64,000 nt of DNA, from positions 1,730,001-1,794,000 of the forward strand of contig NZ_CP046457.1 in assembly GCF_009734445.1 (NCBI RefSeq), written 5' to 3'. Source of the stretch: Candidatus Syntrophocurvum alkaliphilum (GTDB taxonomy: Bacteria > Bacillota > Syntrophomonadia > Syntrophomonadales > Syntrophomonadaceae). Under the pieces are notes generated by a model that ran no database searches, was not told the DNA's origin, and saw nothing but the letters and a program-made list of their open reading frames with translations. Made by a program: the position numbers and the translations under genes. This document shows, piece by piece, positions 8,930 through 63,302 of this stretch; the first letter of the stretch is position 1; every line of letters begins with the position of its first letter.

Positions 8930-8954
8930 GTTAATATTTCTCCTATGGTTTTTA

Positions 8955-20184: not shown

Positions 20185-20199
20185 ATAATTCTCCTTAGT

Positions 20200-20427
20200 T
20201 GATTGTTGCGAAGTGTTTTTTAGCAAGGTTAAGCTCTAAATTGCTGATACCTACATATTTTTTTAATTAACCTTTCCTTTTTCGTCACTATCAAATAGGA
20301 TAAAGTTTTGTATTATATCTAGGAGTTTTTTTCTAAGACTCCTTATAAAAAGACGTTCTGTCCATTGTTTTCTACATCAGGTATTTCCTTTAATTTAAAA
20401 GGATAAGCATCTTTCCCCTCCAAATAG
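20200..20427 (-). pseudogene. hsdR relic
   Basis: DNA here matches two separate parts of the intact hsdR at 55567-58704: its last codons (20200-20232 match about 55569-55605) joined directly to a middle stretch (20233-20427 match about 57825-58012). About 2.2 kb of hsdR has been lost between. The upper break is at about 20427, where the helicase gene begins to match something else. With ygjP copy 1 it is the remains of a second hsdR-ygjP module. Confidence 0.85.
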
Positions 20428-24196: not shown

Positions 24197-25171
24197 AGAA
24201 CCGTACATTTTTACTAGCATTCTGGGTGATTTAATGGTTGGATATATAGAAGAACAAAGAGCTGTTGGATATAAATATACCAAAGGTGCATCACTTTTAA
24301 AAAAACTTGATCAATTGATTGTAAAAAACAATCTAAAGAGCAAAGAATTACCTAAAGAATTGGTATACCAATGGACAGCAAAAAGACCTAATGAAACAGA
24401 AAGCACCCAAAATGGCAGGATTTCAACAGTACGTGGTTTTGCAAAATATATGGTTCGTTTAGGATATGATGCTTACATTTACCCACCTCGCGCACTTACC
24501 ATTGAAAGATATTCGTATATTCCTTATATTTTTTCTAAACAAGAAATAAAAAAGATATTTGATATATGCGATAACTATCCAATTTCGGTATATTCTCCAA
24601 ACAGACATCTCGTTATTTCACTTATACTAAGAATGTTATATGGATGTGGCTTAAGAATATCCGAAGCTGTAAATTTAAAAATAAATGATGTTAATTTAAC
24701 TGATGGAACATTGACTATACATAATACAAAATTTGATAAAAGTCGAATTGTTCCAATGTCAGAATCTCTAAACAAGCAATGTCAACTATATGTAAAAGAA
24801 GTTCATCAGTTCGAAAGCAAGAATCCCTACTTTTCCCATCGCCATATGGTGAAAATTATAATGAAAGCACTATATATAAATTGTTTAGAAAAATAATATG
24901 GCAAGCAAATATTTCTCATAGCGGAAAAGGACCGAGGCTTCATGATTTAAGACATACATTTGCAGTACATTGTTTGAAAAAATGGGTGTTAGCAGGAGAA
25001 AACCTAACAAATCTTTTACCTTACTTGTCTGTTTATCTTGGTCATAACGATTTAAGGGGAACTCAACACTATCTTAGATTAACATCTGATTTATATCCTA
25101 CAATAACCACATCAGTGGAGCAGCATTTTTCAAACACAATACCGGAGGTAGTATTTTATGAAGATGACTAA
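24189..25171 (+). pseudogene. Rit recombinase B, frameshifted
   Basis: Two frames form a tyrosine recombinase of about 327 aa. The first (24189-24896) holds the N-terminal domain and YGCGLRISEAVNLK; the second supplies LHDLRHTFAVHCL and LGHNDLRGTQHYL with the tyrosine. They join near 24813-24823, where one base is missing: after HQFES the reading should pass to LLFPSPYGENYNES. The total 983 nt is one short of a whole number of codons. It could be a real mutation, which would disable the trio, or an assembly error. Confidence 0.88.
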
Positions 25172-26180
25172 TTTTGCTAGAACATTAACCCGTTACATGT
25201 CAGACTATCTCCCAACGCAACGTAATGTTAGCACAAATACAATCAAGTCTTACAGAGATACATTTAAACAACTATTGAATTATTTTGATGAAATACTAAA
25301 CATTAAACCTGAACATCTTACTTTTGAAAAAATAACTGCTGAGACAATTAAAGATTTTCTATTATGGCTTGAAAAGTCAAAAGGTGTTAGCATCAATACA
25401 CGTAATCAAAGACTAGCTGCAATACATAGCCTCTTTAGATATGTGCAGTCAGAAAATCCAGAGTTTTTATTAGAAAGTCAACGTATATTAGGAATTCCTT
25501 TTAAAAAAAGAGAAAAGAAGTCAATATCTTATTTAACCCAGGAATGTCTTAAAGCTTTATTACAACAACCAAATCCTAATACAATAAAAGGCCGTCGTGA
25601 TCTTACAATGATAGCTACTTTTTATGATACCGGAGCTAGAGTACAAGAATTAATTGATTTAAAAGCATGTGATGTTAGATTGACAAAACCTGCAACTGTT
25701 TTATTAACTGGAAAAGGAAACAAACAACGCTCTGTACCTATCATGGGAAAGACTTGTACATTATTAGAAGAGTATATGAGAGAACATTATCTTTTAGAAA
25801 ATGGTTATCAGAATCATCCATTGTTTTTTAATAGCAATAGAAAACCCTTTACAAGACCAGGGGTATCATACATTCTGGAAAAGTATCTTAAGAAAGCCAA
25901 AGAATCATATCCAGAAATGCAATTCCCGAAAAGCTTACATCCTCATATGATTAGACATACTAAAGCAATACATTTATTGGAAGCTAATGTTAATTTAATT
26001 TATATTAGAGACTTACTAGGACATGTTAATGTTACCACTACAGAAATTTACGCAAGGGTTAATTCAGAAGTTAAAAGAAAAGCATTAGAAGCAGCTTATG
26101 TTGAGGTTGTAAAACAAGATATTCCTGCTTGGGATAAAGATACTGATTTATTAAATTGGTTAAATGATTTTTGCAGATAA
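25158..26180 (+). CDS. Rit recombinase C (tyrosine recombinase)
   Basis: 340 aa. XerC/D-like layout: N-terminal core-binding domain (8-105) and catalytic domain with Arg in YDTGARVQELIDLK, HPHMIRHTKA and LLGHVNVTTTEIYARV carrying the tyrosine. All catalytic residues are present. Overlaps recombinase B by 14 bp. Confidence 0.92.
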   Translation: MKMTNFARTLTRYMSDYLPTQRNVSTNTIKSYRDTFKQLLNYFDEILNIKPEHLTFEKITAETIKDFLLWLEKSKGVSINTRNQRLAAIHSLFRYVQSENPEFLLESQRILGIPFKKREKKSISYLTQECLKALLQQPNPNTIKGRRDLTMIATFYDTGARVQELIDLKACDVRLTKPATVLLTGKGNKQRSVPIMGKTCTLLEEYMREHYLLENGYQNHPLFFNSNRKPFTRPGVSYILEKYLKKAKESYPEMQFPKSLHPHMIRHTKAIHLLEANVNLIYIRDLLGHVNVTTTEIYARVNSEVKRKALEAAYVEVVKQDIPAWDKDTDLLNWLNDFCR

Positions 26181-26187
26181 AAAAAGA

Positions 26188-26264
26188 TTATGGAAAGATT
26201 TTAGAATTATGCGATTTTTTTAACCATGAATTATTGCTTACTTAACACTAAAATCTTTCCATAA
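26188..26264. repeat. Subterminal inverted repeat at the right end of the Rit element
   Basis: 17-bp perfect arms TTATGGAAAGATTTTAG (26188-26204) and CTAAAATCTTTCCATAA (26248-26264). A weaker equivalent exists at the left end (22850-22865 with about 22897-22913). They probably form recombinase binding sites and a transcription stop after the third gene. Confidence 0.8.
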
Positions 26265-26286
26265 GCAAAAACTTGCTATAATTTCC
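26256..26286. repeat. Rit element right inverted repeat
   Basis: 31 bp inverted relative to 22828-22858, one mismatch; ends at the TTTCC that abuts the istB reading frame. Confidence 0.92.
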
Positions 26287-26619
26287 GACTCCGGAATTTC
26301 CGATCAATAGAATATTGCTGTTAGTCTCTAAGAATCTTAAACTTTCAAAATCTAAGAATTGTTGTTTATTAATTTTAGGTTGGAATTCAAAATCAAAATC
26401 TTTGAGTTCTTTTTGATGTGGAAATCCAGCTACTTTAACCATTGCATTGGTAGCATTAAAGTTTTTAACTTCTATCTCTTTAGAAGTAAGTTCGTATAAA
26501 GCATCTATAACGCTTATTTTCCCATCATTTATTTGGTCTAAATAATTATCTAACTTAATACTCATCTGGGTTAACTTAAGCTCTTTTAAATTGTCATGTA
26601 ATATTTGATAATTGCTCAT
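26287..26619 (-). pseudogene. istB: istB, 5' part
   Basis: N-terminal part of the IS21 helper ATPase: helical N-terminus, NFNATNAMVKVAGFP region and the start of the P-loop (LLIGNSGVG), where the reading frame is split by the inserted element. The start overlaps the end of istA by 26 bp, as is common for istA-istB. Confidence 0.9.
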
Positions 26620-27886
26620 TAAATTTCTCCAATTCCCTTAGATGCTGTATAGCATATTCTTCAACCCCATCATGTTTTCTAAATGTTTGTTTTAACATGT
26701 CTAAATGATGCTGTTCTGTGTATGTTATTTTTTTGTTTTCCATGATTTCATGGACAGTAATAAGTTTTTTGTTATAATAGACATGCAAGTTATTTTCAAT
26801 TATTTTTATTGTTACTTTCTTTCCAATTAAGGTTGAAGGAACTGAATACATTTTCTTTTTGTAAGAGAAAAGTGCATTTGTATTTACATTCACCTTTATG
26901 GAAGAAAGCTTATAGGAAGAACATATTTTTTCTTGTGGTAAAGGAAAAAGATGTTCTCTTTCTTTTTTGTACATAAGTATAGGTGGTATGCCTGTACTCT
27001 GACAAATTCTAGTATTAGCCTCGTTTGTTATCTGCTCTAATTTTTCATGTAATTGTTCGATATTATCTAACACTCCGTTATAAGTCATTATTTCATCTAT
27101 AATTTTCATAGGATTCTCTACTTTTGCTTTAGTTTGAGGCCTTCCTTTAATACAAGGAACTACTTTAAATCCATAATCATCTGCAAATTGCTGAAATTTA
27201 GGATTAACAGTACCATCTGATAATTCTGTTCTAGCTTTTAACATCATTGTAGTAGCATTATCTATAACTAACTCCTTAGGCACACCCCCTATTGTTTCAA
27301 AAGCATTAGCTAAAAAGTCTACAACACAATCTAAGCTTGTTGATAAGTAAATAAGCCAAACTTTTTGCCTTGATGCTGATAATACTAAGCTTCCTACATT
27401 TATAATTATTTCTTCACTATTTCTAAACCTAAATTTAATTTTTTCTTTCCAATCAAACTGTGCTTGTTTACCTAGTTCTGTTTCTGTTTTAATTGAATTT
27501 GAATTACCTTTTGGTTTAAAATAATTAGCAAACTCTTCATGCTTTAGTATGTAGTAATTAAAGTTATTCCTGGTGCATTTTAATCCATGCTCTCTTTGTA
27601 AATATCTAAACAGATGATCTTTGTAATAAAACATTTGAGATGATTCATCAGATAGTAATTCTTTTATAATTTCATAGTAGTCATCAATCACAGATTTTTT
27701 CTTTTTTCTTTCCTTTTTATCAGCTCCTATGTAATATTTTTTAACTGTCCTTCTATCAACCCCCAAATTCCTTGCTATTTCACTAAAATTTGGCTTATCC
27801 AAGTTATTTGCCTCCACAAGTGTTTTAAGTTTCGGTAAGTCTTTTACTGAGTTAATATCAATATCAGTAATTAATTTTATTTTCAT
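26594..27886 (-). CDS. istA: IS21-family transposase IstA
   Basis: 430 aa DDE transposase. An N-terminal helix-turn-helix (NFSEIARNLGVDRRTVKKYY) is followed by the rve integrase core; acidic residues are seen in QFDWKE and ELVIDNATT, and the third in the VENPMK region (Glu). The length is slightly below many IstA proteins. With istB broken, transposition would need help from another copy. Confidence 0.9.
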   Translation of the reverse strand: MKIKLITDIDINSVKDLPKLKTLVEANNLDKPNFSEIARNLGVDRRTVKKYYIGADKKERKKKKSVIDDYYEIIKELLSDESSQMFYYKDHLFRYLQREHGLKCTRNNFNYYILKHEEFANYFKPKGNSNSIKTETELGKQAQFDWKEKIKFRFRNSEEIIINVGSLVLSASRQKVWLIYLSTSLDCVVDFLANAFETIGGVPKELVIDNATTMMLKARTELSDGTVNPKFQQFADDYGFKVVPCIKGRPQTKAKVENPMKIIDEIMTYNGVLDNIEQLHEKLEQITNEANTRICQSTGIPPILMYKKEREHLFPLPQEKICSSYKLSSIKVNVNTNALFSYKKKMYSVPSTLIGKKVTIKIIENNLHVYYNKKLITVHEIMENKKITYTEQHHLDMLKQTFRKHDGVEEYAIQHLRELEKFNEQLSNIT

Positions 27887-47068: not shown

Positions 47069-47233
47069 TCAAATACTCCTTTCAAATCATCTGCTACGCC
47101 TTAGCTATGTTTAATATTTTTATCTGTTATAATGAATATTTTAACACTTCTACATAAGTTTTAGGTTAGCATTTATCATTATTTACTATCATCTAAAACT
47201 ATGTCTCCTGCTTATATTTTACCATCTACACGT

Positions 47234-47290
47234 ACTATACAGTCAGCTTTAGTTATAAGCCTTTTTTTAATTGTTTCTTCTTTCAGCTGG
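47234..47290 (-). pseudogene. Short relic of a ygjP gene
   Basis: About 52 bp here match the ygjP copies (near 20009-20070 and 55381-55440) at most positions, including CAGCTTTAGT and AATTGTTTCTTCTTTCA. Nothing else of the gene remains. The rest of the 304-bp gap (47069-47372) shows no gene. Confidence 0.7.
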
Positions 47291-51355: not shown

Positions 51356-51398
51356 GGTTCCATATGTATCACCTAAAATTAAATTGGTGGAGGCGGGG
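51356..51398. repeat. Left copy of a 43-bp direct repeat (ssrA 3' end + mntA start)
   Basis: Identical to 62686-62728 except for one base. It contains the last 14 bases before and including the CCA of tmRNA and the 5' leader and first codons of mntA, but no gene continues on either side. Typical of the duplicated end of an island at ssrA. Confidence 0.85.
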
Positions 51399-51432
51399 CT
51401 TATAGGGTTGAAGCCACAGTAGACCTATAATT

Positions 51433-52518
51433 TTAGTGAAAACGCTTGTCCTTTATATCTATGTTTAAATCCCACAATAAATTGCTTTTGAAAAAATATT
51501 TATTCAATTCATCTTTTCCTATTTGTTTATCTCTTAATTCTAAAACCTTTAATAGGTTTTGTAGCGATAAGTATTTTATTTTTGTTTCAGCAAAATCACG
51601 ATAAAAATTTTCCATGTTTATGTATTCACGAATTAATTTGTAGTCTTTTTCAGGTTCTTTTCCTACTATTATAAAATATATATCATTAGCATAATCACAT
51701 TGAAGTTTTAATGCTTGAAATTTTATTAAAACATCAGTCCATTTTCTTTTAAACTCTACTTCAAAAACAGCTATAATTTTTCCTTTGTGTTCTGTCCATA
51801 TTACATCAATTAAATCGACTTGTTCGCTCGACTTACATTCAATTAAATTATTTAAATCAAGATTATGCATATTTAAGATTCCAACAGTTTTAAGGTTAGT
51901 TCCATTAAAGCTTTTATTTTTATCATTTTTTGCGAATTTAGATCTATAAGCTAAACTTACTGCTAAAGCACCTAATAAAGCTTGATAACTTAAATGTGTA
52001 TTTTTCAATATTTCTTTGTTTGGAAAGTAATATTTGTGTTTAGTTAGATTCTGTAAATTTGCATTATCAAACTCTATATACACATTGTCAGTTTTCTGCG
52101 TCCCAAATTTAAGTAAATTATATTCTACAAACCAAGCCTTAATTTTATTATTATCTAATTTAAATCCATCATAATAACCCCTATCCAATATCTTCTCTCT
52201 TATTTCATTATATTTATCATACCAGTTATGATAAACCAGTATATTAGAACTATTTGGGTCATTTGTTGGTCTAGTAACAACTAATTTGCTTTTAGGGTCA
52301 ATTGTTTTATTAGTTTTTATTTCTGCTATATCGAAATAATTACATTTCCCGCAAGAACGATTAGTATCCCATGGTTTTAATATATTATAACGGTTGAGTA
52401 GTTTTCTAATTTCAATATGTTTACTGTCTTTTAATGCATTAATTATCTCAGACTTTTCAATATATTGTGTATTTCTAAAAGTATTTATAATAATTTCCGA
52501 GTTATATTTATCTTCCAA
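51433..52518 (-). CDS. Putative restriction endonuclease, partner of the divergent methyltransferase
   Basis: 361 aa, no family recognised with certainty. A CGKC pair (residues 56-59) may bind zinc. In the second half VDLIDVIW...IIAVFEVEFKRKWTD fits a PD-(D/E)xK nuclease: Asp, then Glu-x-Lys/Arg on the next strand. It diverges from a DNA methyltransferase gene 219 bp away, the usual arrangement of a type II system. The specificity is unknown. Confidence 0.6.
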   Translation of the reverse strand: MEDKYNSEIIINTFRNTQYIEKSEIINALKDSKHIEIRKLLNRYNILKPWDTNRSCGKCNYFDIAEIKTNKTIDPKSKLVVTRPTNDPNSSNILVYHNWYDKYNEIREKILDRGYYDGFKLDNNKIKAWFVEYNLLKFGTQKTDNVYIEFDNANLQNLTKHKYYFPNKEILKNTHLSYQALLGALAVSLAYRSKFAKNDKNKSFNGTNLKTVGILNMHNLDLNNLIECKSSEQVDLIDVIWTEHKGKIIAVFEVEFKRKWTDVLIKFQALKLQCDYANDIYFIIVGKEPEKDYKLIREYINMENFYRDFAETKIKYLSLQNLLKVLELRDKQIGKDELNKYFFKSNLLWDLNIDIKDKRFH

Positions 52519-52737
52519 CTATTTATCCCCCAAACTAGTTTTCCTTAGTTTTAGGAATAAATTCAAAAAGATACTATAAAAAATTAGCAAAATATCATAA
52601 AACTTGTAAAGTAAAAATTTATTATACTAAAGAAGTGTAAATACCATAAAATACCTTGTGCTATGTAGTTATTAATTAATATAGACACAAATAAACTTTA
52701 AAAAGGGTGCCCTAATACTTATAAAAGGAGCATAGGC

Positions 52738-53616
52738 TTGGACAATAAAATTTTTAAAGGGCACAAAGGTAAAAACCAATGGACAATCTACCCGTATGAT
52801 TGTATAAAAGCTATGAAGCAAATTCCTGATGAGTCTATAGACTGTATCATTACAAGTCCACCATATTTAAACAAAAGATCATATGGTCAAGTTGGTCGTG
52901 AACAAGGAAATAAAGCAATGTACAAATATGCTGCATCTGGAAAACCATTAGAATATGAAATTGGTTGTAATCAAAATATAGATGAATATTTCAATAGCAT
53001 AAATCAAGTTTTCAAATTATGCTATGTATTATTAAAACCTGATAAATTCTTCTTTTTCAACATTGGTAATTTAAGAAGAAACAAAGAAACAACTGATATT
53101 AGCCATATATTTGTTCAAATGGCCAAGGATATTGGTTTTAAGCATAGAGATACTATAATATGGGTAAAAAATAACCCGCGACCTGTGCCGCCTAACTCCG
53201 AAATATATTGGCTTGACAATGGTTGGGAATATTTGCTAATGTTTTCAAAGGGAACTGGTACTATAGATAGAGAAAAATATGACTTAACAGTTAAGAACAA
53301 CTGTAAAGTATGTAAAACTCAGCAAGAATTTGAAAAAACTAAGCCTAATTACTTCAAGACTAATATAGGTTATACTGAGGAAAGTATAAAGCATGAGCAC
53401 CCTGCAAAATTCCCGCTAAGTTTACCAAGATTTGTTCTGCAACTATGTACTAAAGAAAATGACACAATACTAGATCCTTTCGCTGGAGTAGGAACTACTT
53501 TAATCGCTGGTTTACAATTAAATAGAAATGTTATAGGTTGTGAACTTAATTACGACTATTGTGAAAAAGCGGTAGATGAAATAAAAAAGACAATATTTAT
53601 TATAAATAAACCATAA
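52738..53616 (+). CDS. DNA methyltransferase (TSPPY type, N4-cytosine or N6-adenine)
   Basis: 292 aa. Catalytic motif TSPPYLNKRSYG near residue 40 precedes the SAM-binding motif DPFAGVGTT near 250, so it is a beta-class enzyme; the SPPY form is common in N4-cytosine methylases. A small CxxC feature (CKVCK) lies in the recognition part. Starts with TTG after AAGGAG at 8 bases. It probably protects host DNA from the divergent nuclease. Confidence 0.88.
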   Translation: MDNKIFKGHKGKNQWTIYPYDCIKAMKQIPDESIDCIITSPPYLNKRSYGQVGREQGNKAMYKYAASGKPLEYEIGCNQNIDEYFNSINQVFKLCYVLLKPDKFFFFNIGNLRRNKETTDISHIFVQMAKDIGFKHRDTIIWVKNNPRPVPPNSEIYWLDNGWEYLLMFSKGTGTIDREKYDLTVKNNCKVCKTQQEFEKTKPNYFKTNIGYTEESIKHEHPAKFPLSLPRFVLQLCTKENDTILDPFAGVGTTLIAGLQLNRNVIGCELNYDYCEKAVDEIKKTIFIINKP

Positions 53617-53741
53617 GTAAATTTCACAAAATTAAAAGAGGACCAGACGCATCCAATCCCCTTAAGTGTATGCCGAAGCAATACACCGCTATTACTTGTA
53701 TATTATGATACTAAAACAAAAATAATTCGTAAAGTAAAAAT

Positions 53742-54712
53742 TTAAATATAATTATTTAAGCCATTTACTTTATTTCTAAAATCTGAACCCATTATCGAGG
53801 TATGAACAGATATAGGAATAGTATTTCTTAGTTGTTCTGATTCTATATAGATATTTCGCACAATTTTTTTTAATTCTGTTTTATTTATACCGAGCTTCTT
53901 TAAAAGAAAGATTACGATTATAAAATAATCTACAATATTTTCAAAATTAATATTGGATATACCAGTTTCACTTTGAAGATATTCTTTTAATCTTGACGGA
54001 GGATTAGTTTTCTTAAATCTGCAATCAAAAACTACTGAATTATGAGCTACAGCATTACGCAGTTCTTTGATTAGAAAAATAATATCTTCTATAATTCTTC
54101 CATTTTGGTTATGGGAACTAGTATGAATTCCTAAGTCCTTAGCAACGGCTATCCTAGTGTTTTGATTTAAACACTGCAAGAAAAATCCAAATTCCCCCAT
54201 ATTTATAACTTCAAAAATCGCCCAAAGCGGTATTGGTTTATTACTATGAAAGAAATGAGAAATTACAGCTCTTTGTTGTGAATAACTAAAACTTATTTTT
54301 TGGTTTATCTTATTTCTAAGTTCTAATCTATTTTTCATTTTTTCCCTGTATCTTGAATTACCTGTATTCTCCTGTTTATAATCATTTAAAAAATTTGTAA
54401 AAACATAATCGAAGTCAATTGGCCCCATACTAATTAAGGTATTTAATGTGTAATTTTTAATTGCCGTTTCGATAAACATAATTCTCGGATATAAAATAGT
54501 TTTTAAGTTAGTATCAAAATCATACACACTAACAATTTCATTAAAATCGTCATATAGAATTTGATTGTTAGAATTCCCAATAAAACGATACCTTTTTACC
54601 CATGATAATAGCCCATATTTAAAAGCTGTTTTTTGTTTTTGCTACCACTTATAGATATACCATGATTATTTCTAAGATGCCGCATTAATGCGTCGGTAGT
54701 TTTGCCTTTCAA
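53742..54712 (-). pseudogene. Abi_2-family abortive infection protein, frameshifted
   Basis: An AbiD/AbiF-type protein of about 323 aa with HEPN motif RNAVAH in the C-terminal half, which in active members is an RNase site. The intact C-terminal frame covers 54527-53742. The N-terminal part begins at TTG 54712 (after GGAGGAG) and reads KGKTTDALMRHL...LLNMGYYHG, then hits a stop at 54596-54598. One missing T there would give HGYKRYRF, the expected family sequence. So one base is missing, by mutation or assembly error. It lies inside the defence block. Confidence 0.85.
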
Positions 54713-54842
54713 CAAAATCTCCTCCAGTTATTATCTTTAAGCGAAATTTTCAACCTCATAACAACATTTCTACCTATTATCAGTATTTTCCTTCAATACA
54801 AACAAAAATCACTGAAAAATTGGAATTATATTCAAAAACAAA

Positions 54843-55556
54843 TCACAACCCCATCCTCACCCCATTATTCCTTAGCCACTTTCTTCTCTCTTTATAATCA
54901 GGAAGGATAGATTCTACTAGATTCCAGAATTCTTTGGAATGATTTAGGTGTACTAGGTGGGCCATTTCGTGGACTACTATGTAATCTATAACTGGGGATG
55001 GTGCCATTATTAGTTTCCAATTTAAATTAATATTACCTTTTGAACTACAACTGCCCCACCGTTTCTTTTGTTCTTTCACAGTTACTTTTGCGGGTTTTTT
55101 GCCTATTTTATATTGATAATACTCGACTCGTTCATTTATTTTTTCTTTGGCTTTTTCACGGTACCATTTTTCCATTGCATTCTTTAATGCTTCTTCATCT
55201 TTCGTGGGAGTAGATATTATAAATTTTCCTCTAAAAAGCTTTACTTCGGGCACTTGTAAACTATCATCTAGTTCTATTTGTAAAGAATAGTTTCTTCCCA
55301 TGTACATAAATGATTCACCATTTACAAACTCTTTTTTAAGGGGAATATGTTTTACATTTTTAAACTCATATAGCTTTTTTACTATCCAGTCCGCTTTAGT
55401 CATAACCTTCTTTTTAATTGTTTCTTCTTTCATTCCAACTGGAACTATAGCTGTTACTTTATCAGGTGCTTCAACAGTAATAGCCATAGTTTTGCGTTTT
55501 CTATATATAACATCAAAGTAAATAGTCTTTGTCCCATAGTTAATTGATAGCTGCAT
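54843..55556 (-). CDS. YgjP-like metallopeptidase, copy 2 (hsdR-linked)
   Basis: 237 aa, same family and almost same sequence as 19483-20184. Motif HEMAHLVHLNHSKEFW. The ATG at 55556 has AAGGAG 7 bases ahead and lies 10 bp after the hsdR stop, so it belongs to the hsd operon. The function in type I systems is not known to me. The last residues (NNGVRMGL) differ from copy 1 (EKIK). Confidence 0.88.
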   Translation of the reverse strand: MQLSINYGTKTIYFDVIYRKRKTMAITVEAPDKVTAIVPVGMKEETIKKKVMTKADWIVKKLYEFKNVKHIPLKKEFVNGESFMYMGRNYSLQIELDDSLQVPEVKLFRGKFIISTPTKDEEALKNAMEKWYREKAKEKINERVEYYQYKIGKKPAKVTVKEQKKRWGSCSSKGNINLNWKLIMAPSPVIDYIVVHEMAHLVHLNHSKEFWNLVESILPDYKERRKWLRNNGVRMGL

Positions 55557-55566
55557 ATAATTCTCC

Positions 55567-58500
55567 TTAGTTGATTGTTGCGAAGTGTTTTTTAGCAAGG
55601 TTAAGTAATGGTTGTACTAAGGATTTACGATCCTCTATAGAAAGCTTACTGTGGTATTTTATATTTAGTTTCATGTAAATTGCTCTTTCTATTTGATTAC
55701 TTTTAGTAGGATTTATTGTCCAATCAATAACATAATTCTCTTTAACAATTTGAGCTACATCTGTAGCTATTTCTTTTGCTAGTTCTACTACATCAGTAGT
55801 TATGTATTCTACTCCATCCTCAGCAACTAATTCTGATTCTGTGTCATTAGTAGAACTTAATTGCTTACGAACTATTTCAAAGAATGAATACTCTTCTTTG
55901 CTAAGACCCAAAGCCTTAGCTTGTTCTGTTTCACCTTTTTGTACATCAGTTTCTAAGAATTTTTCTAATTTATTTTTTCTCTCCACCCAATCATTACGTG
56001 TTTCTTCTAGTATTTGCTGTAGCTTGTCTAGTAAGCTAGTATAGTAAACTGGATTATCATCTAGTTTTACTCGTATCATTTCTCTAACTGAGTGCTCCAT
56101 AGCTGATGCTTTTGCTTCATCGGTCTTTAAGGTATTTAATTTGTCTCTAAAGTCATTATCAAATAGGCTCATAGGTGTTATCCACTGCCTAACCCCTAAA
56201 GACTGTAAGTGTTCTGAAATTATTTGTTTTACTTTTTGTCCACAATCAGATATATCTAGATGCTTACCTGGCTCAAATCTTGCTTTGGCTGCCGCCCTTA
56301 TGTAAGATAGCCAACGTAAATCATTTATGTTATTAGTAGGCACATGGCTTGGTAAGATTTGCTCCATTGCCGAAGCATATCTTTTATAGGCTAGCTCAAA
56401 TTCTGCTCTTTTGTCTTCTGGTTTTATTTTATTAATTAATGCATCTAAATCATTTTTATCTGTTCCGTTAAATATCGCCATCACTGCTTCACGGTATGAT
56501 AGCATTTCTTTATATATTGCATCAGTTGACTGCATAGGTTCTCCTAACTCATCTTTATCAAATATAGCTAAGGCTTCTTCTAAAAAGTTAGAAACACCAT
56601 AATAATCAACAATATAACCACATTTTTTATCTCCATGAGTTCGATTAACTCGGGCTATAGCTTGTAAAAGGTTGTGTTCTTTTAATGGACAATCCAAGTA
56701 CATTACCTGCTCAATAGGTGCATCAAATCCTGTTAAAAGCATGTCTTTTACTATTATAAAGGTTAGTTTATCTTCCTCTAAAGGTTGCTTAAATCTATTT
56801 ATAAGGTTTTTTTGCTGAGCTTTAGTAGTATTATGCTCTTTTAGATGAGGTGGATCATTAAGACTGCCTGAATATATTATTTGCACCTCTAGTGGTTCAT
56901 CCATTATATCTTCCATGTGTTTATTAATAGCATTATAGTATTTAACACAAGCTTCTCGCGAAACACAAACTATTTGCGCTTTAAAACCATTAGGGTATAC
57001 TTGTTCCTTATAATGTTTTAGTAGATCTTTAGCTATAGTATCTATCCGGTCATCTGCTTCAACTACAGCTTTTTTGTTAACATATTTTTGCTTTATTGCT
57101 TCTCTTTCTTCTTCACTTCTGTTTTCAAATGCTTGGTCAAACAGTTCTTCTAATGTTTCACCTTTTATCTGTAAATCAGGTCTTCTACCTTCATATATGA
57201 TTGGCACAGTGGCTCCATCTTCTACTGCCTGTTGAATTGTGTATTTGTCAATATATCCCCCGAACCTTTTCGGAGTTGATTTATCTTTTTTATCTATAGG
57301 TGTACCAGTAAAGCCTATAAATACAGCATTAGGTAAAGCATCTCTCATGTTTTTAGCAGTATTTTTGTATTGACTGCGATGTGCTTCATCAGCTAATACT
57401 ATTACATTTGACTTAGTTGTTAGAACCTCAAAAGGCTTTTCAAAATAAAGTGCGGTTTCTTGTTTGCCATCATTAAAAACAGCCTTTTCTTCTTTTTCAC
57501 TTTGAAATTTTTGAATAGTAGTCATTATTATCTGAGCCCTAGCTCCTGATAATAGTTCTTTCATTTGGGCAATAGTTTCTGCTCTCACTGGTGTAGTTAT
57601 AGTAGATAAAGTATTTACAAAGGTATTATAAATTTGGTCATCTAAGTCAATTCGATCAGTTACTACCACAATAGTAGCATCTCTTAATCTAGGTATTCTT
57701 CTTATTTTTCTAGCTAAATAAACCATAGTTAAGGATTTACCTGATCCTTGAGTGTGCCATATAACTCCACCACGTGTTAAAGCATCTTTACCATTTATTA
57801 AATTACTTATAGATTTGTTAACAGCTCTAAATTGCTGATATCTACATATCTTTTTAGTCTTTCCTTTTTCATCACTATCAAATAGGATAAAGTTTTGTAT
57901 TATATCTAAAAGGTTTCTTTGTTCTAAGACTCCTTGTAAAAAGACGTTCTGTCCATTGTTGTCTACATCTGGTATATCCTTTAATTTAAAAGGATAAGGA
58001 TCTTTCCACTCCAAATAGTTTCCATAACCAGAACTAATAGTACCTACATATGCATGATACTTGTTTAGAATGGCGGTAAAAAAGTTAGTATGAAAAAGAC
58101 GCGGAGCACCTTCTCCTTTTTGAGAGCCTCTTTGATCCATATATCTTCTTAGTTGTTCAAATGCCTCATATTTACCTATATTCTCATTCTTACTTTTTTC
58201 TAGAAAAGGTGATTTGCATTCTAATACAACTACTGGAATTCCATTTATAAATATAATAATATCAGGAATTATTTTTTCAGTTGGCCCCTGAATTACAAAC
58301 TGTCTAGTAACTAAAAACTCATTATTATCTATATTGTCCCAGTCAATAAACTTAACGGTATGAAACTTTTTCTTGCCACTACCATCTAAATCTTGATCTA
58401 AAGAGTATTTAAGATTAACTATAGCATCATATATTTTTTCGTTTATTTCTAATAAACTTGCTCCTAAGTTATCAGCACGACTAATAAAGCGCACAGCTTT

Positions 58501-58704
58501 ATTTAGGTTACTCTCATTTATCCATGGATTAATCCTTTTTAAGGACTGAATTAACCTATCATGTAAGATTACTTCATTAAGTGATTCTCTTTCTCCATTT
58601 TCAGGAGTTAAGTTATCACCATGATTAAATTCATAACCTAGGTTTTTTAAGTATTCTATTGCTGGCAATTCTACCAAAGTTTCTTCGTTTCCTAGATATG
58701 GCAA
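55567..58704 (-). CDS. hsdR: Type I restriction enzyme, R subunit
   Basis: 1045 aa. N-terminal nuclease domain with VVLECKSP (ExK), then motor domain with IWHTQGSGKSLTMVYLARK (Walker A), LADEAHRSQY (DEAH-like) and ARVNRTHG (motif VI), and a C-terminal helical region that docks on the methylase core. It translocates DNA with ATP and cuts unmodified DNA. TTG start behind AAGGTGG. It follows hsdS by 139 bp and looks full length and intact. Confidence 0.95.
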   Translation of the reverse strand: MPYLGNEETLVELPAIEYLKNLGYEFNHGDNLTPENGERESLNEVILHDRLIQSLKRINPWINESNLNKAVRFISRADNLGASLLEINEKIYDAIVNLKYSLDQDLDGSGKKKFHTVKFIDWDNIDNNEFLVTRQFVIQGPTEKIIPDIIIFINGIPVVVLECKSPFLEKSKNENIGKYEAFEQLRRYMDQRGSQKGEGAPRLFHTNFFTAILNKYHAYVGTISSGYGNYLEWKDPYPFKLKDIPDVDNNGQNVFLQGVLEQRNLLDIIQNFILFDSDEKGKTKKICRYQQFRAVNKSISNLINGKDALTRGGVIWHTQGSGKSLTMVYLARKIRRIPRLRDATIVVVTDRIDLDDQIYNTFVNTLSTITTPVRAETIAQMKELLSGARAQIIMTTIQKFQSEKEEKAVFNDGKQETALYFEKPFEVLTTKSNVIVLADEAHRSQYKNTAKNMRDALPNAVFIGFTGTPIDKKDKSTPKRFGGYIDKYTIQQAVEDGATVPIIYEGRRPDLQIKGETLEELFDQAFENRSEEEREAIKQKYVNKKAVVEADDRIDTIAKDLLKHYKEQVYPNGFKAQIVCVSREACVKYYNAINKHMEDIMDEPLEVQIIYSGSLNDPPHLKEHNTTKAQQKNLINRFKQPLEEDKLTFIIVKDMLLTGFDAPIEQVMYLDCPLKEHNLLQAIARVNRTHGDKKCGYIVDYYGVSNFLEEALAIFDKDELGEPMQSTDAIYKEMLSYREAVMAIFNGTDKNDLDALINKIKPEDKRAEFELAYKRYASAMEQILPSHVPTNNINDLRWLSYIRAAAKARFEPGKHLDISDCGQKVKQIISEHLQSLGVRQWITPMSLFDNDFRDKLNTLKTDEAKASAMEHSVREMIRVKLDDNPVYYTSLLDKLQQILEETRNDWVERKNKLEKFLETDVQKGETEQAKALGLSKEEYSFFEIVRKQLSSTNDTESELVAEDGVEYITTDVVELAKEIATDVAQIVKENYVIDWTINPTKSNQIERAIYMKLNIKYHSKLSIEDRKSLVQPLLNLAKKHFATIN

Positions 58705-58765
58705 GATTTCACCACCTTTGGGGTTTGTAATTTTGAATTTTCAATTCTTAATTTTTAATTATAGT

Positions 58766-58784
58766 TGGAAAGCTTTGCTTTCCA
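58766..58784. repeat. Hairpin TGGAAAGC-TTT-GCTTTCCA between hsdS and hsdR
   Basis: Perfect 8-bp arms. Preceded by AATTCTTAATTTTTAATT, the same word that is tandemly repeated at 63091. Similar arms GAAAAGC/GCTTTTC occur at 63176-63192. Probably a small dispersed repeat. Confidence 0.6.
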
Positions 58785-58843
58785 TTTGTTATAGATATTG
58801 ACACTGACAGACACAGATTAAACAGACTAACACAGACTTTTTA

Positions 58844-60118
58844 TTACACCTTTACCCTTATTTGACCGGTTAAGAGTTTTTGCATAAGTCCTTTTTTTAG
58901 GAGTTCTAGGTTTTGTTTTTTGGTTTGGTAGTTTTCTAGTTTTTCGTCGACTGAGGATAGGATTTCTGCTATTTTTTGTTGTTCGGATATTGGAGGGATA
59001 GGAATAAATAATTTCATTAATTCATTTTTTGATAAGTTATACCTAGTTGAACCCTGTCCAAGTACGCTAATTTTTTTTCTTATTATCTCACTTCTTAATA
59101 AATAAGCTGCAAATTCAGGAATTAAAAAATAGAAATTTTTTAATCTATAACCAAAACAAAAACTATTTAAATAAACTTCATCAACTTCATCTAATAAAAC
59201 TGAACTCATTCCTACTTCTACTACAGACTCTGAGGATGTTGTAAAAAATATATCTCCATATTTAACTTTATTCTGGTTTTCATTACTTTTTATATTAACG
59301 TATTGAAAGTTATTTATATTAATTCTTGTGTTATCAAATATATTTTTATATGGAATAAATGGCTTTCCAAAACCAAAATCATTTTTATTTTTACCAGAAA
59401 GACCAGAATATGTATCCCCTAATTCTGATAATTGTTTAAGCTCCCACTCCTCCGGAATCTCTCCTAAATCTGTCTTTTTAAATTTGGTATGTCCAATTCC
59501 TTTAGTTAGAAGTTTTTGCATTAAACCTTTTTTAAGCTCTTTGGTTTTTTCTATTAAAGCATCAATCTGCTCAATTTGCTCATCAACAGTTGAAAGTATA
59601 TCGGCTATTTTTTTTTGTTCTTTCAAATGTGGTAATGATAAACTAAGTTCTTCTGTAAAAACTTCTTTTGCAACCCTTTGACGACCAGTTGTTCCAAGCA
59701 TTCTATTTATTGCATAATTTCTAATTCGTTCTGATCGCATTGTATAATATAAGAACTTAGGAATGATTTCATCACTAAATGGTGATAAAACAACAAATTC
59801 AGTAGATCCTAAGCCATAATCAGTAGCTAATTTTTCAACATAACCACATTTACCATTTTCTGTACATGGTGTTATTCTTGCAAATAATGTGTCTTGCTCT
59901 TTAAATTTGCTTCCTGATGCTTCTCCATACACTCTACTTTTAATGTTTTTAATTTGGTTTTCTTCTGCTGATGGCAAAGAGCTCATTGCAATATAATCAT
60001 ATGTTTTTCCTCTAGTTAGTTTGTAGTTAGGATTAATTCTTGCTATTTTTGAAAGTTTTTTTACTTCCCACTCCTCTGGAATCTCACCCAATTCAGTTTT
60101 CTTATAACCTTCTCTCAT
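58844..60118 (-). CDS. hsdS: Type I restriction enzyme, S subunit
   Basis: 424 aa specificity subunit with two target-recognition domains (about 15-190 and 225-405), each started by a GEIPEEWE-type phrase and ended by a coiled coil (KKIADILSTVDEQIEQIDALIEKTKELKKGLMQ, cut here in two segments in the protein). The repeated halves LMQKLLT confirm two conserved regions. It sets the sequence recognised by the complex. ATG after GAGGT. Confidence 0.93.
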   Translation of the reverse strand: MREGYKKTELGEIPEEWEVKKLSKIARINPNYKLTRGKTYDYIAMSSLPSAEENQIKNIKSRVYGEASGSKFKEQDTLFARITPCTENGKCGYVEKLATDYGLGSTEFVVLSPFSDEIIPKFLYYTMRSERIRNYAINRMLGTTGRQRVAKEVFTEELSLSLPHLKEQKKIADILSTVDEQIEQIDALIEKTKELKKGLMQKLLTKGIGHTKFKKTDLGEIPEEWELKQLSELGDTYSGLSGKNKNDFGFGKPFIPYKNIFDNTRININNFQYVNIKSNENQNKVKYGDIFFTTSSESVVEVGMSSVLLDEVDEVYLNSFCFGYRLKNFYFLIPEFAAYLLRSEIIRKKISVLGQGSTRYNLSKNELMKLFIPIPPISEQQKIAEILSSVDEKLENYQTKKQNLELLKKGLMQKLLTGQIRVKV

Positions 60119-60387
60119 TCCGCTAACCTCTTTATCAATTAAATATTTATAAATATCCCGGTAAACTTACATTAAGTAAAAAAGCACTGTTTTTCAACAT
60201 TAATTAAAAATTCATAATTAAAAAAGTCAGCAACCTTAATAAGCGACCGAAAGGGAGCATCAGTAGTACCCGAAGGGTGTGTAAGTCGTTCGTCGCTCCT
60301 TGCCGTCCATGGCACCGCGACACTTGTCCATCCGTGGACTTCGAAGTCTGTGGAGTCTGTGTCTATTAAAAAACGGTGAATATATTC
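60119..60387. other. G+C-rich spacer between hsdM and hsdS
   Basis: 269 bp without a gene. About 60230-60350 is clearly richer in G+C than the surroundings (AAGCGACCGAAAGGGAGC, later GTCCGTGGAC-like inverted words) and contains repeated short words such as AAGTCTGTGGAGTCTGTG. I see no RNA family in it. It splits what is usually a tight hsdM-hsdS pair. Confidence 0.5.
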
Positions 60388-61905
60388 CTATATCTCCTCA
60401 AACCCCAACTCTTTCAAATATCCATTAAGCTTATCTTCAGTCTCGTCAATCTTAGAATTTATCTCTCTAATATCCTTTAGCACCGCTTCTATATCTACTT
60501 CTTCCTCTTCCTGAGTTGTATCTACATAACGACTAATGTTTAAGTTGTAATCATGCCCCTCGATTGTATTTCTATCTACCACTGTAGCAAATTTATCTAC
60601 ATTCTCAAATTTATCAAAAGCCTGTACAATTCTCTCTATATCTTCATCCCTGAGTTTATTTTTATTACCATCCTTTATAAATCCTTTACTAGCATCTATA
60701 AATAAAACTTTATCCTTTCTCTCAATGGGCTTATCTTTGTTAATTATTAATAATGCTGCTGGTATGCTTGTACCGTAAAAAATATTTGCAGGTAAGCCTA
60801 TTACTGCTTCGATTAAATCATCTTTTAGAAAACCTTTTCTAACATTACCTTCTGCTCCACCTCTGAATAAAACACCATGTGGTACAACAGTTCCTATGTT
60901 TCCTTTACTATTTAGACTTGCAACCATATGACAAACAAATGCTAAATCCCCATATGATTTTGGTGGTATTCCATAGGGAAACCTTATAAATGGATCTGCT
61001 TCTACTTCTTCTTTCCCCCAATTTTTTAGACTAAATGGTGGATTCGCTAACACTTTATCAAATGTTTTTAACACTCCACCTTCTGTATGTTGAGGTTCTC
61101 TTATAGTATCACCTTTCAAAATATCTGCACCTGTAGCATTATGAAAAAGCATATTCATTTTACATATAGCCCAAGTTGAAAGGTTTATTTCTTGTCCAAA
61201 TAATGATGTGTTTTTAAAATTACCACCTTGTTCTTTTATGTATCTTATACTTTCTATTAAAAATCCCCCCGAGCCAACTGTCGGGTCATAAAGTCGGTCT
61301 CCTTCTTGCGGTTTTAAAATTCTAACTAATAATCTTCTTACTTCATATGGAGTATAAAACTCCCCACCTTTAGCCCCACCATCATTAGCAAATGTTTTAA
61401 TCAAATACTGGTAGGCATCTCCTAATACATCATCATTTTCTAATTTTTCACTGGCTAAATTAACTTTATCAAATAATAATAATAGCTGTGATAGCTTTTT
61501 ATCAGGTACTCTCTCTTTATCATTATAATTAGCTGTGGTTAATACCCCTAAAAGTTCTGAATTTCTAGGTTCATCTTCTATTGCTTTAAATGCCTTGTCC
61601 AATTCTGGACCAATGTTTAAAGTTAGGTTTTTAAGTTTATCCCATCTAGCACTTTCTGGTACAAAAAAGTTTTCATATATAACAGGTTCTTCTAGTAGTG
61701 CAGCTACTTCACTATCTGGCATTCCTTGTGATATAAACTCTTGTCGCTTTAAATCTCTTTCTATTTCAAACTCATCATTCATTCTTTTTAAAAATAATAA
61801 TCCAAAAACATAATCTTTATATTCAGCAGCAGACAATTCCCCACGCAATATATCCGCAGCATTCCATAATATAGTCTCTAATTGTTTTAAAGTTAACTTG
61901 CTCAT
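60388..61905 (-). CDS. hsdM: Type I restriction enzyme, M subunit
   Basis: 505 aa N6-adenine methyltransferase. N-terminal helical domain, SAM motif DPTVGSGGFLIES (about 206-218) and catalytic NPPFS. With HsdS it methylates host sites. GGAGCG precedes the ATG at 7 bases. First gene of the hsdM-hsdS-hsdR-ygjP series; a terminator stands between it and the upstream toxin-antitoxin pair. Confidence 0.95.
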   Translation of the reverse strand: MSKLTLKQLETILWNAADILRGELSAAEYKDYVFGLLFLKRMNDEFEIERDLKRQEFISQGMPDSEVAALLEEPVIYENFFVPESARWDKLKNLTLNIGPELDKAFKAIEDEPRNSELLGVLTTANYNDKERVPDKKLSQLLLLFDKVNLASEKLENDDVLGDAYQYLIKTFANDGGAKGGEFYTPYEVRRLLVRILKPQEGDRLYDPTVGSGGFLIESIRYIKEQGGNFKNTSLFGQEINLSTWAICKMNMLFHNATGADILKGDTIREPQHTEGGVLKTFDKVLANPPFSLKNWGKEEVEADPFIRFPYGIPPKSYGDLAFVCHMVASLNSKGNIGTVVPHGVLFRGGAEGNVRKGFLKDDLIEAVIGLPANIFYGTSIPAALLIINKDKPIERKDKVLFIDASKGFIKDGNKNKLRDEDIERIVQAFDKFENVDKFATVVDRNTIEGHDYNLNISRYVDTTQEEEEVDIEAVLKDIREINSKIDETEDKLNGYLKELGFEEI

Positions 61906-62004
61906 TGCTCACGCTCCAAATCTAAGCTTCACTTATAGAAAATATTAACTATTATATTCAATTATTAACTTGGATTTCCTGTTGGTATAGATTAAATAAG
62001 CATT

Positions 62005-62035
62005 AAAAAACACTATAAACATAATGTTCATAGTG
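62005..62035 (-). terminator. Terminator after hepT
   Basis: Stem CACTATGAACAT / ATGTTTATAGTG with T6 on the minus strand. Confidence 0.8.
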
Positions 62036-62061
62036 CCATGCTTTGTGCTTTTAAACAATAT

Positions 62062-62403
62062 TTATTGTTCTTTGTAACTATCTACTATTATTTGAATTTT
62101 ACTAACAAGTGGTGGTAAATCTATTTCTACTACATTCCAAACTATATTTAAATCGACACCCATGTAATCATGAATTAGCACATCCCTAATTCCGGCCATT
62201 TTCTTCCAAGGTATCCCATTGTGCTGTTCACGTATTTTTACTGAAACTTTTTTTGTTGCCTCTCCTATAACTTCTAAATTTCTAATTACAGCATCTTGGA
62301 TCATAGTATTGTTCATAAAACTATTTTTTCCATCTTCTGTATAGCTTTGAACTTTTTCAATGCATTCTAATATATGAATTAAGTATAATTTATCACTTTT
62401 CAT
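62062..62403 (-). CDS. hepT: HepT-like HEPN ribonuclease toxin
   Basis: 113 aa DUF86 protein. RDVLIHDY fits the Rx4-HxY active site of HepT toxins. Shares ATGA with the preceding mntA gene, the standard antitoxin-toxin arrangement. Known pairs act by AMPylation of a HepT tyrosine by MntA; here the Tyr after His is present. Confidence 0.9.
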   Translation of the reverse strand: MKSDKLYLIHILECIEKVQSYTEDGKNSFMNNTMIQDAVIRNLEVIGEATKKVSVKIREQHNGIPWKKMAGIRDVLIHDYMGVDLNIVWNVVEIDLPPLVSKIQIIVDSYKEQ

Positions 62404-62693
62404 AATTGTATAGCCTCCCTTTTTACTTGGTCAGCTATTAAATTATGTAATGATTTTTCAGTTGCTATATCAACTTTAAATCCTAGCAATTCCTCTAATT
62501 CTAATTTTAGACCTACCATATCAAAAAGCGTTCTATCTTTATCAAAGTCAACAAGCAAATCTAAGTCACTGTTTTTATGCTCTTCACCTCTTGAAATTGA
62601 TCCAAATATACGAATATTGCTGGCTCCATACTTTTGAGCCAGCTTTAATATTATTTCTTTATTTTGTTTGATAACATTTAATTTTGGTTCCAT
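62400..62693 (-). CDS. mntA: MntA-like nucleotidyltransferase antitoxin
   Basis: 97 aa. The nucleotidyltransferase motif GSISRGEEHKNSDLDLLVDF carries GSx10DxD. The ATG at 62693 follows AGGTGA at 5 bases; a start at 62702 is less well placed. Its first codons and leader lie inside the 43-bp repeat and start 22 bp after the tmRNA 3' end. Confidence 0.9.
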   Translation of the reverse strand: MEPKLNVIKQNKEIILKLAQKYGASNIRIFGSISRGEEHKNSDLDLLVDFDKDRTLFDMVGLKLELEELLGFKVDIATEKSLHNLIADQVKREAIQL

Positions 62694-62728
62694 ATGTATC
62701 ACCTAAAATTTAATTGGTGGAGGCGGGG
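62686..62728. repeat. Right copy of the 43-bp direct repeat
   Basis: Overlaps the 3' end of tmRNA and the start of mntA. Pairs with 51356-51398 (one mismatch, 11,330 bp apart), bracketing the restriction, Abi and toxin-antitoxin genes. Confidence 0.85.
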
Positions 62729-63071
62729 GGAATCGAACCCCCGTCCGAAAGAAAGACCAGCTGAGTCTCTCCGAGCGCAGTCTGTGTACTAAACTTCGCC
62801 TTCAGTCGCCCACAGACAGGCTACTTTCTGGCTATCCCCGATTAATTTCCCCTTAAAGCCCCTCGAGGAGAAAGACTTCAGGGTACCCTCACTGTGTGAC
62901 GCCCTAAACTAAGCCGTGAGGAAACCTAGCCGGACGAGCTGCTTTAAGCAGCAGCTAGTGAATAATTATCTTCTGCAGTTATTTTAACTGATCCACCTTT
63001 TTAACGAGTCGGTGAAGAACTCGGCTCGCTACTCAACCCACCTTTTCCCTCGTCGAAGCCATTACGCCCCC
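62715..63071 (-). ncRNA. ssrA: Transfer-messenger RNA
   Basis: 357 nt. The acceptor stem pairs GGGGGCG (5' end, 63071-63065) with CGCCTCC ahead of ACCA (62721-62715 region); the T-arm GGGGGTTCGATTCCCCC is intact. The tag frame reads AEDNYSLAAA and a stop (about 62964-62932). It rescues stalled ribosomes with SmpB. The 3' CCA is encoded. Its 3' end is duplicated at 51356. Confidence 0.95.
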
Positions 63072-63090
63072 ATGATATATTAATTAATAA

Positions 63091-63170
63091 TTCTTAATTT
63101 TTAATTCTTAATTTTTAATTCTTAATTTTTAATTCTTAATTTTTAATTCTTAATTTTTAATTCTTAATTA
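63091..63170. repeat. Tandem repeat TTCTTAATTTTTAA, 14 bp x 5.7
   Basis: Five perfect copies and a partial one in the 305-bp gap between smpB and ssrA, 20 bp upstream of the tmRNA 5' end, so in its promoter zone. No CRISPR-like spacers. The same word occurs singly near 58745. Confidence 0.9.
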
Positions 63171-63302
63171 ATGATGAAAAGCAAAGCTTTTCTTTTTACT
63201 ATCGGCTAATAATTTCGATTATATGGGACTATGGGTTTTTGTTAAGTTTTAGAAATCACCTAAGTTATAATTGAAAATCTATGATTTTCATTCCTTAATT
63301 AA

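What the first reader, a model, noticed from the sequence alone, without database searches (positions are those of the whole stretch)
51356..62728. Defence block bracketed by 43-bp direct repeats derived from the ssrA 3' end
The end of tmRNA plus the start of mntA is copied, with one mismatch, 11.3 kb away, where it belongs to no gene. Everything between is defence: type II-like pair, Abi, type I system, MntA-HepT. ssrA is a classic integration site. No integrase is inside, so the block is either a non-autonomous cassette or an island that lost its recombinase. The right repeat includes mntA codons, so exchange may have happened in a longer homology than a usual att core.
Basis: partly seen in the sequence, partly recalled or inferred. 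Interest (0 to 1): 0.75.

Follow-up and report, generated by a model that had tools for sequence, protein, structure and literature searches.

The report
Stranded defence island at tmRNA gene
An 11.3-kb block of intact anti-phage defence genes sits at the end of the tmRNA gene and has lost its DNA-inserting enzyme, of which only the last 14 amino-acid codons remain at its far edge; this shows how the block probably arrived and why it may now be stuck.

Summary
The repeat is real: 51356-51398 and 62686-62728 match at 42 of 43 bases, and they are the only two such sites in this closed 2.36-Mb Syntrophomonadales genome. The block between them carries a divergent type II-like R-M pair, an Abi_2 gene, HsdR/S/M with a YgjP metallopeptidase, and MntA-HepT. 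No recombinase lies inside.

The main new result: the left copy is not gene-less. On the + strand, ssrA's last 14 bases run in frame into GGGGAYRVEATVDL* (51386-51430), the C-terminal tail of a large serine recombinase (LSR) family that inserts at ssrA. In relatives, insertion splits the LSR gene: the body abuts ssrA and the tail marks the far end, with the same 14-base overlap. Here the body is gone, and a genome search with the family's C-terminal domain found nothing.

Best reading: an LSR-type ssrA island that lost its integrase, similar to integrase-less ssrA islands of Dehalococcoides and to cis-mobilizable elements (CIMEs). The other 29 bases of the repeat hold the mntA ribosome-binding site and start; simple insertion does not explain them, but tandem modules or recombination may. 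The right junction resembles a restored attB, so self-excision is unlikely. No empty site in a sister strain was available.

The parts
51356..51398 (.). left copy of the 43-nt direct repeat (displaced ssrA end at 51385-51398 plus 29 nt with a broken mntA leader/start)
   Evidence: the repeat finder; only two copies in the genome
51386..51430 (+). orphan C-terminal tail of an ssrA-targeting large serine recombinase: GGGGAYRVEATVDL* (attR arm)
   Evidence: 19-20 of 30 nt identical to two G031 tails outside the ssrA part, 0 of 20,000 shuffles
51433..52518 (-). restriction-endonuclease-like protein (361 aa)
   Evidence: PADLOC REase_II 4e-6; 31% to Enterococcus proteins, some annotated type II restriction endonuclease; no Pfam or PDB match
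52738..53616 (+). N6/N4 DNA methyltransferase, divergent partner of the REase-like gene
   Evidence: Pfam PF01555 6e-43, PADLOC MTase_II 3e-43
53742..54527 (-). Abi_2 / AbiD abortive-infection protein
   Evidence: Pfam PF07751 3e-24, PADLOC AbiD 1.5e-20
54843..55598 (-). YgjP-like metallopeptidase, overlapping the 3' end of hsdR
   Evidence: Pfam PF01863 4e-67
55567..58704 (-). HsdR, type I restriction subunit
   Evidence: TIGR00348 1e-163 over cut-off
58844..60118 (-). HsdS, type I specificity subunit
   Evidence: Pfam PF01420 4e-34, two stretches
60388..61905 (-). HsdM, type I methyltransferase subunit
   Evidence: TIGR00497 1e-84 over cut-off
62062..62403 (-). HepT RNase toxin (RX4HXY motif RDVLIHDY)
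   Evidence: NF047751 61.4 bits, cut-off 60; motif read
62400..62693 (-). MntA antitoxin (GSX10DXD), ATG start inside the right repeat
   Evidence: PADLOC PDC-S09 4e-37 from residue 4 of the GTG-started ORF, so ATG 62693 is the likely start; NF047752 below cut-off (42.5 vs 60)
62686..62728 (.). right copy of the 43-nt repeat (ssrA 3' end, 22-nt spacer with ribosome-binding site, first 8 nt of mntA); attB-like junction
   Evidence: no LSR sequence here apart from ssrA itself
62715..63071 (-). ssrA (tmRNA), the insertion target
   Evidence: ARAGORN, Rfam RF00023 189 bits

Best explanation
The block is the remnant of an ssrA-targeting island of the large-serine-recombinase (DsiB-like) type that has lost its integrase. 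In such islands the integrase gene runs across the attachment site: on the circle it is whole, but insertion at the ssrA 3' end splits it. The body is left against ssrA (reading into antisense ssrA) and a short tail is left at the far end, next to a displaced copy of the last ~14 nt of ssrA. SHOWN here by sequence: the displaced ssrA end with an in-frame homologous tail at the left end, the absence of an LSR body beside ssrA, and no match to this LSR family's C-terminal domain in the genome. SHOWN in relatives: body at ssrA, tail at the far end. INFERRED: the body was lost after arrival. INFERRED: the extra 29 nt of the repeat (mntA leader and start) reflect a second event, most likely two tandem modules with the same ssrA-proximal end of which the second was deleted, or recombination through the 43-nt homology. 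INFERRED: the island is now immobile unless a new LSR element inserts at the intact site beside ssrA; that element could leave together with the block, using the block's left site and tail (accretion and cis-mobilization). The defence genes are uninterrupted, and mntA-hepT is probably transcribed by read-through from ssrA.
For: Tail GGGGAYRVEATVDL* at 51386-51430 in frame with the displaced ssrA end; homologous tails with the stop at a similar place in G031, where an LSR C-terminus reads straight into it, with 19 and 20 of 30 nt identity and none of 20,000 shuffles reaching it; further tails in G107, G147, G182, G210, no reversed-control hit. G147: LSR body abuts tmRNA and the tail lies 43 kb away. 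G210: 544-codon LSR ending in the same tail, with an identical orphan tail 22.8 kb away. Viral contigs L186/L187: same LSR reading into antisense ssrA or into its own tail. The shared ssrA stretch in G147 and G210 is the same 14 nt. LSR bodies abut ssrA in several genomes of this order. No such LSR in the own genome.
Against: No empty site or sister strain was available. The right junction lacks an LSR-type arm and looks like attB, and the 29 nt beyond ssrA shared by both copies do not follow from one LSR insertion. The tail is short (14 codons), and the first pattern that led to it came partly from a weaker match in G035. That the body was lost after arrival, rather than the block having moved as a passenger, is not shown.
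Confidence: 0.75

Rival explanations
1. A tyrosine-integrase island whose att core is the whole 43-nt repeat, centred just past the ssrA end; the integrase was lost or acts in trans.
For: 43 nt is a length that tyrosine integrases can leave, and ssrA is a common tyrosine-integrase target (general knowledge; Islander, PMC4383910). An imperfect CACC...GGTG inverted pair lies near the middle of the repeat. The own genome has tyrosine recombinases.
Against: The left arm encodes an LSR tail. None of the own tyrosine recombinases is linked to ssrA: XerC, XerD, one beside tRNA-Trp with a partner, one truncated near tRNA-Val, and a three-gene cluster 25 kb past the left repeat. The ssrA part is 14 nt, as in the LSR islands.
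Confidence: 0.1
2. The block is a non-autonomous passenger that still moves: it keeps attachment arms and is carried in trans or in cis by LSR elements that visit ssrA.
For: Cargo genes are uninterrupted, the tail arm is preserved, and LSR elements at ssrA occur in several genomes of this order. Fifteen ssrA islands without an integration module are known in Dehalococcoides.
Against: The right junction lacks a P-arm, so the pair of sites is attR plus attB, which serine integrases do not normally recombine (general knowledge). No second genome with the same block was found in the held sets.
Confidence: 0.12
3. No site-specific step placed this block: a DNA piece recombined with the chromosome through the 43-nt homology, or a larger rearrangement copied the ssrA-mntA junction.
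For: The repeat covers the mntA leader and start as well as ssrA, more than the LSR overlap needs. Decayed copies of the hsdR-ygjP unit lie in the left flank, so units of this kind have been copied or gained more than once.
Against: It does not explain why the left copy runs in frame into an LSR tail found at the same position in ssrA islands of other genomes. It remains possible for the second step only.
Confidence: 0.08

Closest known systems
Dehalococcoides ssrA genomic islands (DsiB type), especially the 15 without an integration module (PMC3146451)
   Same: Inserted at ssrA, displaced ssrA 3' end at the far boundary, integrase of the large serine type whose gene overlaps the attachment site at its 3' end, some islands with cargo but no integration module
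   Different: Different phylum and cargo (defence, not reductive dehalogenases); there the direct repeat is 20 nt with insertion in the T-loop, here 14 nt of ssrA plus 29 nt beyond it; an orphan integrase tail is identified here
CIMEs, cis-mobilizable elements of streptococci (PMC7563491)
   Same: Cargo bounded by attachment-type sites with no recombination or conjugation genes; 1.2-13 kb size range quoted for classical CIMEs
   Different: Those derive from ICEs or IMEs and are found in tandem with them; here no parent element is present, no conjugation ancestry is shown, and the right site looks like attB
Defence islands at the tmRNA hotspot (#9) of E. coli (PMC10121019)
   Same: The tmRNA locus as an insertion hotspot among mapped defence-carrying sites
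   Different: Elements reported at that hotspot include prophages, P4-like satellites and IMEs; this block has no mobility gene
Type VII toxin-antitoxin MntA-HepT and type I R-M (HsdRMS)
   Same: Canonical subunits and motifs present
   Different: Nothing unusual except that mntA starts 22 nt after ssrA, inside the repeat

Membership tests
autonomous LSR-type (DsiB-like) ssrA island | displaced copy of the ssrA 3' end at the far boundary | tested here: met
   14 nt at 51385-51398
autonomous LSR-type (DsiB-like) ssrA island | LSR C-terminal tail on the far arm, in frame with the displaced ssrA end | tested here: met
   GGGGAYRVEATVDL*
autonomous LSR-type (DsiB-like) ssrA island | LSR gene body against ssrA | tested here: not met
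   no LSR sequence beside ssrA apart from ssrA itself; none in the genome. So it is not filed as an autonomous member
CIME / integrase-less ssrA island | no recombination or transfer genes inside | tested here: met
CIME / integrase-less ssrA island | attachment sites retained at both ends | tested here: inconclusive
   left end is attR-like with tail; right end is attB-like, not attL
CIME / integrase-less ssrA island | derived from a mobile parent element by deletion | tested here: inconclusive
   the orphan tail shows a parent LSR element; ICE or IME ancestry is not shown
CIME / integrase-less ssrA island | can be mobilized by accretion with an incoming element | not testable with these tools
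   needs an experiment
tyrosine-integrase ssrA/tRNA island | tyrosine integrase in or beside the island | tested here: not met
   none in the block; nearest are the three genes at 22955-26180, 25 kb past the left repeat
type I restriction-modification | HsdR, HsdM and HsdS together | tested here: met
MntA-HepT type VII toxin-antitoxin | HepT RX4HXY and MntA GSX10DXD motifs in an overlapping gene pair | tested here: met
   motifs read; HepT over the NCBIfam cut-off, MntA below it

The most novel reading that the evidence does not exclude
In this LSR family the split of the integrase gene at ssrA acts as an on/off switch: full-length enzyme is made only from the circle or from a tandem array, and integrase-less defence modules persist at ssrA because their orphan tail completes the integrase of any incoming element, which then carries them away.
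Probability: 0.15. Interest if true: 0.7.

Novelty: new variant of a known kind. Interest (0 to 1): 0.5.

Why it matters
Many defence islands have no visible means of movement. Here a 14-codon fossil of the integrase identifies the parent element and its insertion route, and the same tail signature can be searched for in other genomes to find integrase-less islands that carry no recombinase gene. It also bears on a question left open for Dehalococcoides, namely where the end of the dsiB gene lies: in the Bacillota examples read here it lies across the attachment site, at the far end of the inserted element.

Tried and rejected
Exact core sequence (CACCAATTNAATTTTAGGTGATACA) in genome contigs and IMG/VR: no hits. 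A longer form in the 63 genomes of the order with 3 mismatches: own genome only. Whole block against plasmids: no match; against the order's genomes: no second copy, only short or distant matches. The S41 flank gene as a synteny anchor: no close orthologue. The conserved ssrA terminator of several relatives, as a strict pattern in the own genome: absent. The own genome's two prophage LSRs as helpers: 24-29% identical to the ssrA LSRs and 0.9 Mb away. XerC/XerD and the tRNA-linked integrases as helpers: no link to ssrA. MntA relatives next to ssrA: none of those examined. REase homologues in viral contigs: none. G035, G067 and G018 hits of the first tail pattern: G035 has an LSR body at ssrA 2.9 kb away and fits, but its tail is of a different subtype and it had shaped the pattern, so it is only weak support; no LSR or ssrA was seen near the G067 and G018 hits and they were not used.

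Full report
WHAT WAS CHECKED. The window is positions 1,730,001-1,794,000 of a closed 2.36-Mb genome. Its nearest named SmpB relatives are Syntrophomonadaceae and Syntrophomonas, and no congener appeared among the held genomes. The two 43-nt repeats are real and differ at one base. With three mismatches allowed they are the only two sites in the genome, and 15 nt of the ssrA end with two mismatches adds only three other sites elsewhere. tmRNA lies at 62715-63071 on the minus strand. The repeat is therefore the last 14 nt of ssrA plus 29 nt beyond it. Those 29 nt contain AGGTGA and ATGGAACC, the ribosome-binding site and start of mntA.

CARGO. From ssrA outward: MntA and HepT, HsdM, HsdS, HsdR, a YgjP-like metallopeptidase overlapping hsdR, an Abi_2 protein, then a divergent methyltransferase and restriction-endonuclease-like pair. 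The reading frames are uninterrupted. The REase assignment is the weakest: a PADLOC hit at 4e-6 and 31% identity to Enterococcus proteins, some annotated as type II enzymes, with no convincing Pfam or PDB match. No recombinase is present. Block G+C is 30.5%, against 34.2% for the left flank.

WHAT RELATIVES SHOW AT ssrA. Downstream of ssrA the relatives differ strongly. Several keep a hairpin terminator directly after ssrA; the window does not, and a strict pattern for it finds nothing in the genome. In G022, G038, G040, G003, G033 and G035 a large serine recombinase ORF, or a fragment of one, ends against ssrA and reads on into antisense ssrA. The one in G035 has lost its catalytic domain, while those of G022, G038 and G040 carry all three LSR domains. 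In other Bacillota the C-terminal domain of such LSRs also lies next to tmRNA. This is the arrangement described for dsiB in Dehalococcoides, where 15 of the ssrA islands have no integration module and may be cis-mobilizable (PMC3146451).

THE ORPHAN TAIL. The window's left repeat reads, on the + strand, T GGT GGA GGC GGG GCT TAT AGG GTT GAA GCC ACA GTA GAC CTA TAA, that is GGGGAYRVEATVDL*. Upstream in frame there are stops, so no LSR body is attached. Homologous reads occur in G031: an LSR C-terminus continues in frame...EITFKVSVVSN|GGDGAYRVETTIKL*, and a second site reads GGGVAYRVETTVKL*. Outside the ssrA part the window matches these at 19 and 20 of 30 nt, reached by none of 20,000 shuffles. 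A pattern search in 399 Bacillota genomes gave G107, G147, G182 and G210 as well, one off-target hit (G232) and no reversed-control hits. In G147 the LSR body abuts tmRNA and the tail lies 43 kb away. In G210 a 544-codon LSR ends in GGGGAYRAISTVPKRT* and an identical orphan tail lies 22.8 kb away. Two viral contigs carry nearly the same LSR, one continuing into antisense ssrA (L186) and one into its own tail (L187). So insertion splits the LSR gene and the tail marks the far end of the element. The shared ssrA stretch in G147 and G210 is TGGTGGAGGCGGGG, the same 14 nt as the ssrA part of the window's repeat.

WHAT IS MISSING. Beside ssrA the window has 22 nt and then mntA; no LSR sequence matched there apart from ssrA itself. 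The genome has no match to the LSR C-terminal domain and only two resolvase-domain genes, in a prophage-like region at 891-893 kb, 24-29% identical to the ssrA LSRs. Tyrosine recombinases are XerC and XerD, one beside tRNA-Trp with a second small gene next to it, one truncated gene near tRNA-Val, and the three-gene cluster in the window.

INTERPRETATION. The left end is attR-like for an LSR-type ssrA island, and the right end looks like attB. The 14 nt of ssrA fit the LSR family; the 29 nt of mntA leader do not follow from one insertion. Since mntA needs that leader, the left copy is best read as a broken mntA start, so two modules with the same ssrA-proximal end may once have stood in tandem, the second now deleted. 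In G147 the sequence beyond the far site is an LSR C-terminal remnant resembling the one at the near site, which is the same kind of tandem signature. Decayed copies of the hsdR-ygjP unit in the left flank fit a history of repeated units but do not prove it. Homologous recombination through the 43 nt is an alternative for this second step.

PREDICTED BEHAVIOUR (inference from general knowledge of serine integrases). They recombine attP x attB, or attL x attR with a directionality factor. The window's pair is attR and attB, so the block should not excise alone even with a helper. A new LSR element inserting beside ssrA would create an attL that can pair with the block's left attR, so the two could leave together and the block's tail would complete the helper's integrase gene. 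That is accretion and cis-mobilization as defined for CIMEs (PMC7563491). mntA starts 22 nt after ssrA with no terminator between and a terminator-like hairpin after hepT, so read-through from ssrA is likely.

LIMITS. No empty site or sister strain was available. The tail is short and its first lead came from one weaker match (G035); the later in-frame hits with nearby stops are what carry the claim. Some relatives are fragmented MAGs, and G210 has an assembly gap next to ssrA. Function of the cargo was not tested.

Noticed in passing
window 19483-20427: A decayed second copy of the hsdR-ygjP unit: a YgjP gene 96% identical over 736 bp to the one in the block, directly joined to a 200-bp hsdR fragment (89%), 31 kb outside the block and in the same orientation.
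   Followed up: partly
window 47233-47285: A 53-bp fragment 89% identical to part of the block's ygjP, 4 kb beyond the left repeat.
   Followed up: partly
window 22955-26180: Three tandem tyrosine recombinases (recombinase-in-trio-like), the middle one broken into two frames, next to an IS21-like istA/istB pair at 26248-27886.
   Followed up: partly
L186:4598 and L187:4208: Two viral contigs with nearly the same phage LSR, one continuing into antisense ssrA (inserted form), one into its own C-terminal tail (uninserted form).
   Followed up: yes
L163 (G000:C1:884000-902000) and L057: A prophage-like region in the own genome carries a pair of LSRs whose relatives (44-51%) lie 328 bp beyond ssrA in G034.
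   Followed up: partly
L161:6832-8831 and L162:8262-10130: Other recombinase loci in the own genome: a 410-aa tyrosine integrase beside tRNA-Trp with a second small recombinase gene, and a truncated one near tRNA-Val.
   Followed up: partly
window 63080-63177: Tandem 14-nt A+T-rich repeats (TTAATTTTTAATTC) between ssrA and smpB.
   Followed up: no
window about 60228-60347 (block positions 8830-8949): A short sequence between hsdS and hsdM matches many dispersed sites, some in tandem, in other genomes of the family (about 90% over 50 bp), as if a family-wide small repeat.
   Followed up: no
L057, L058, L059, L074 and similar loci, just after ssrA: A conserved hairpin terminator directly follows ssrA in several relatives from three families of the order and is missing from the window.
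   Followed up: partly
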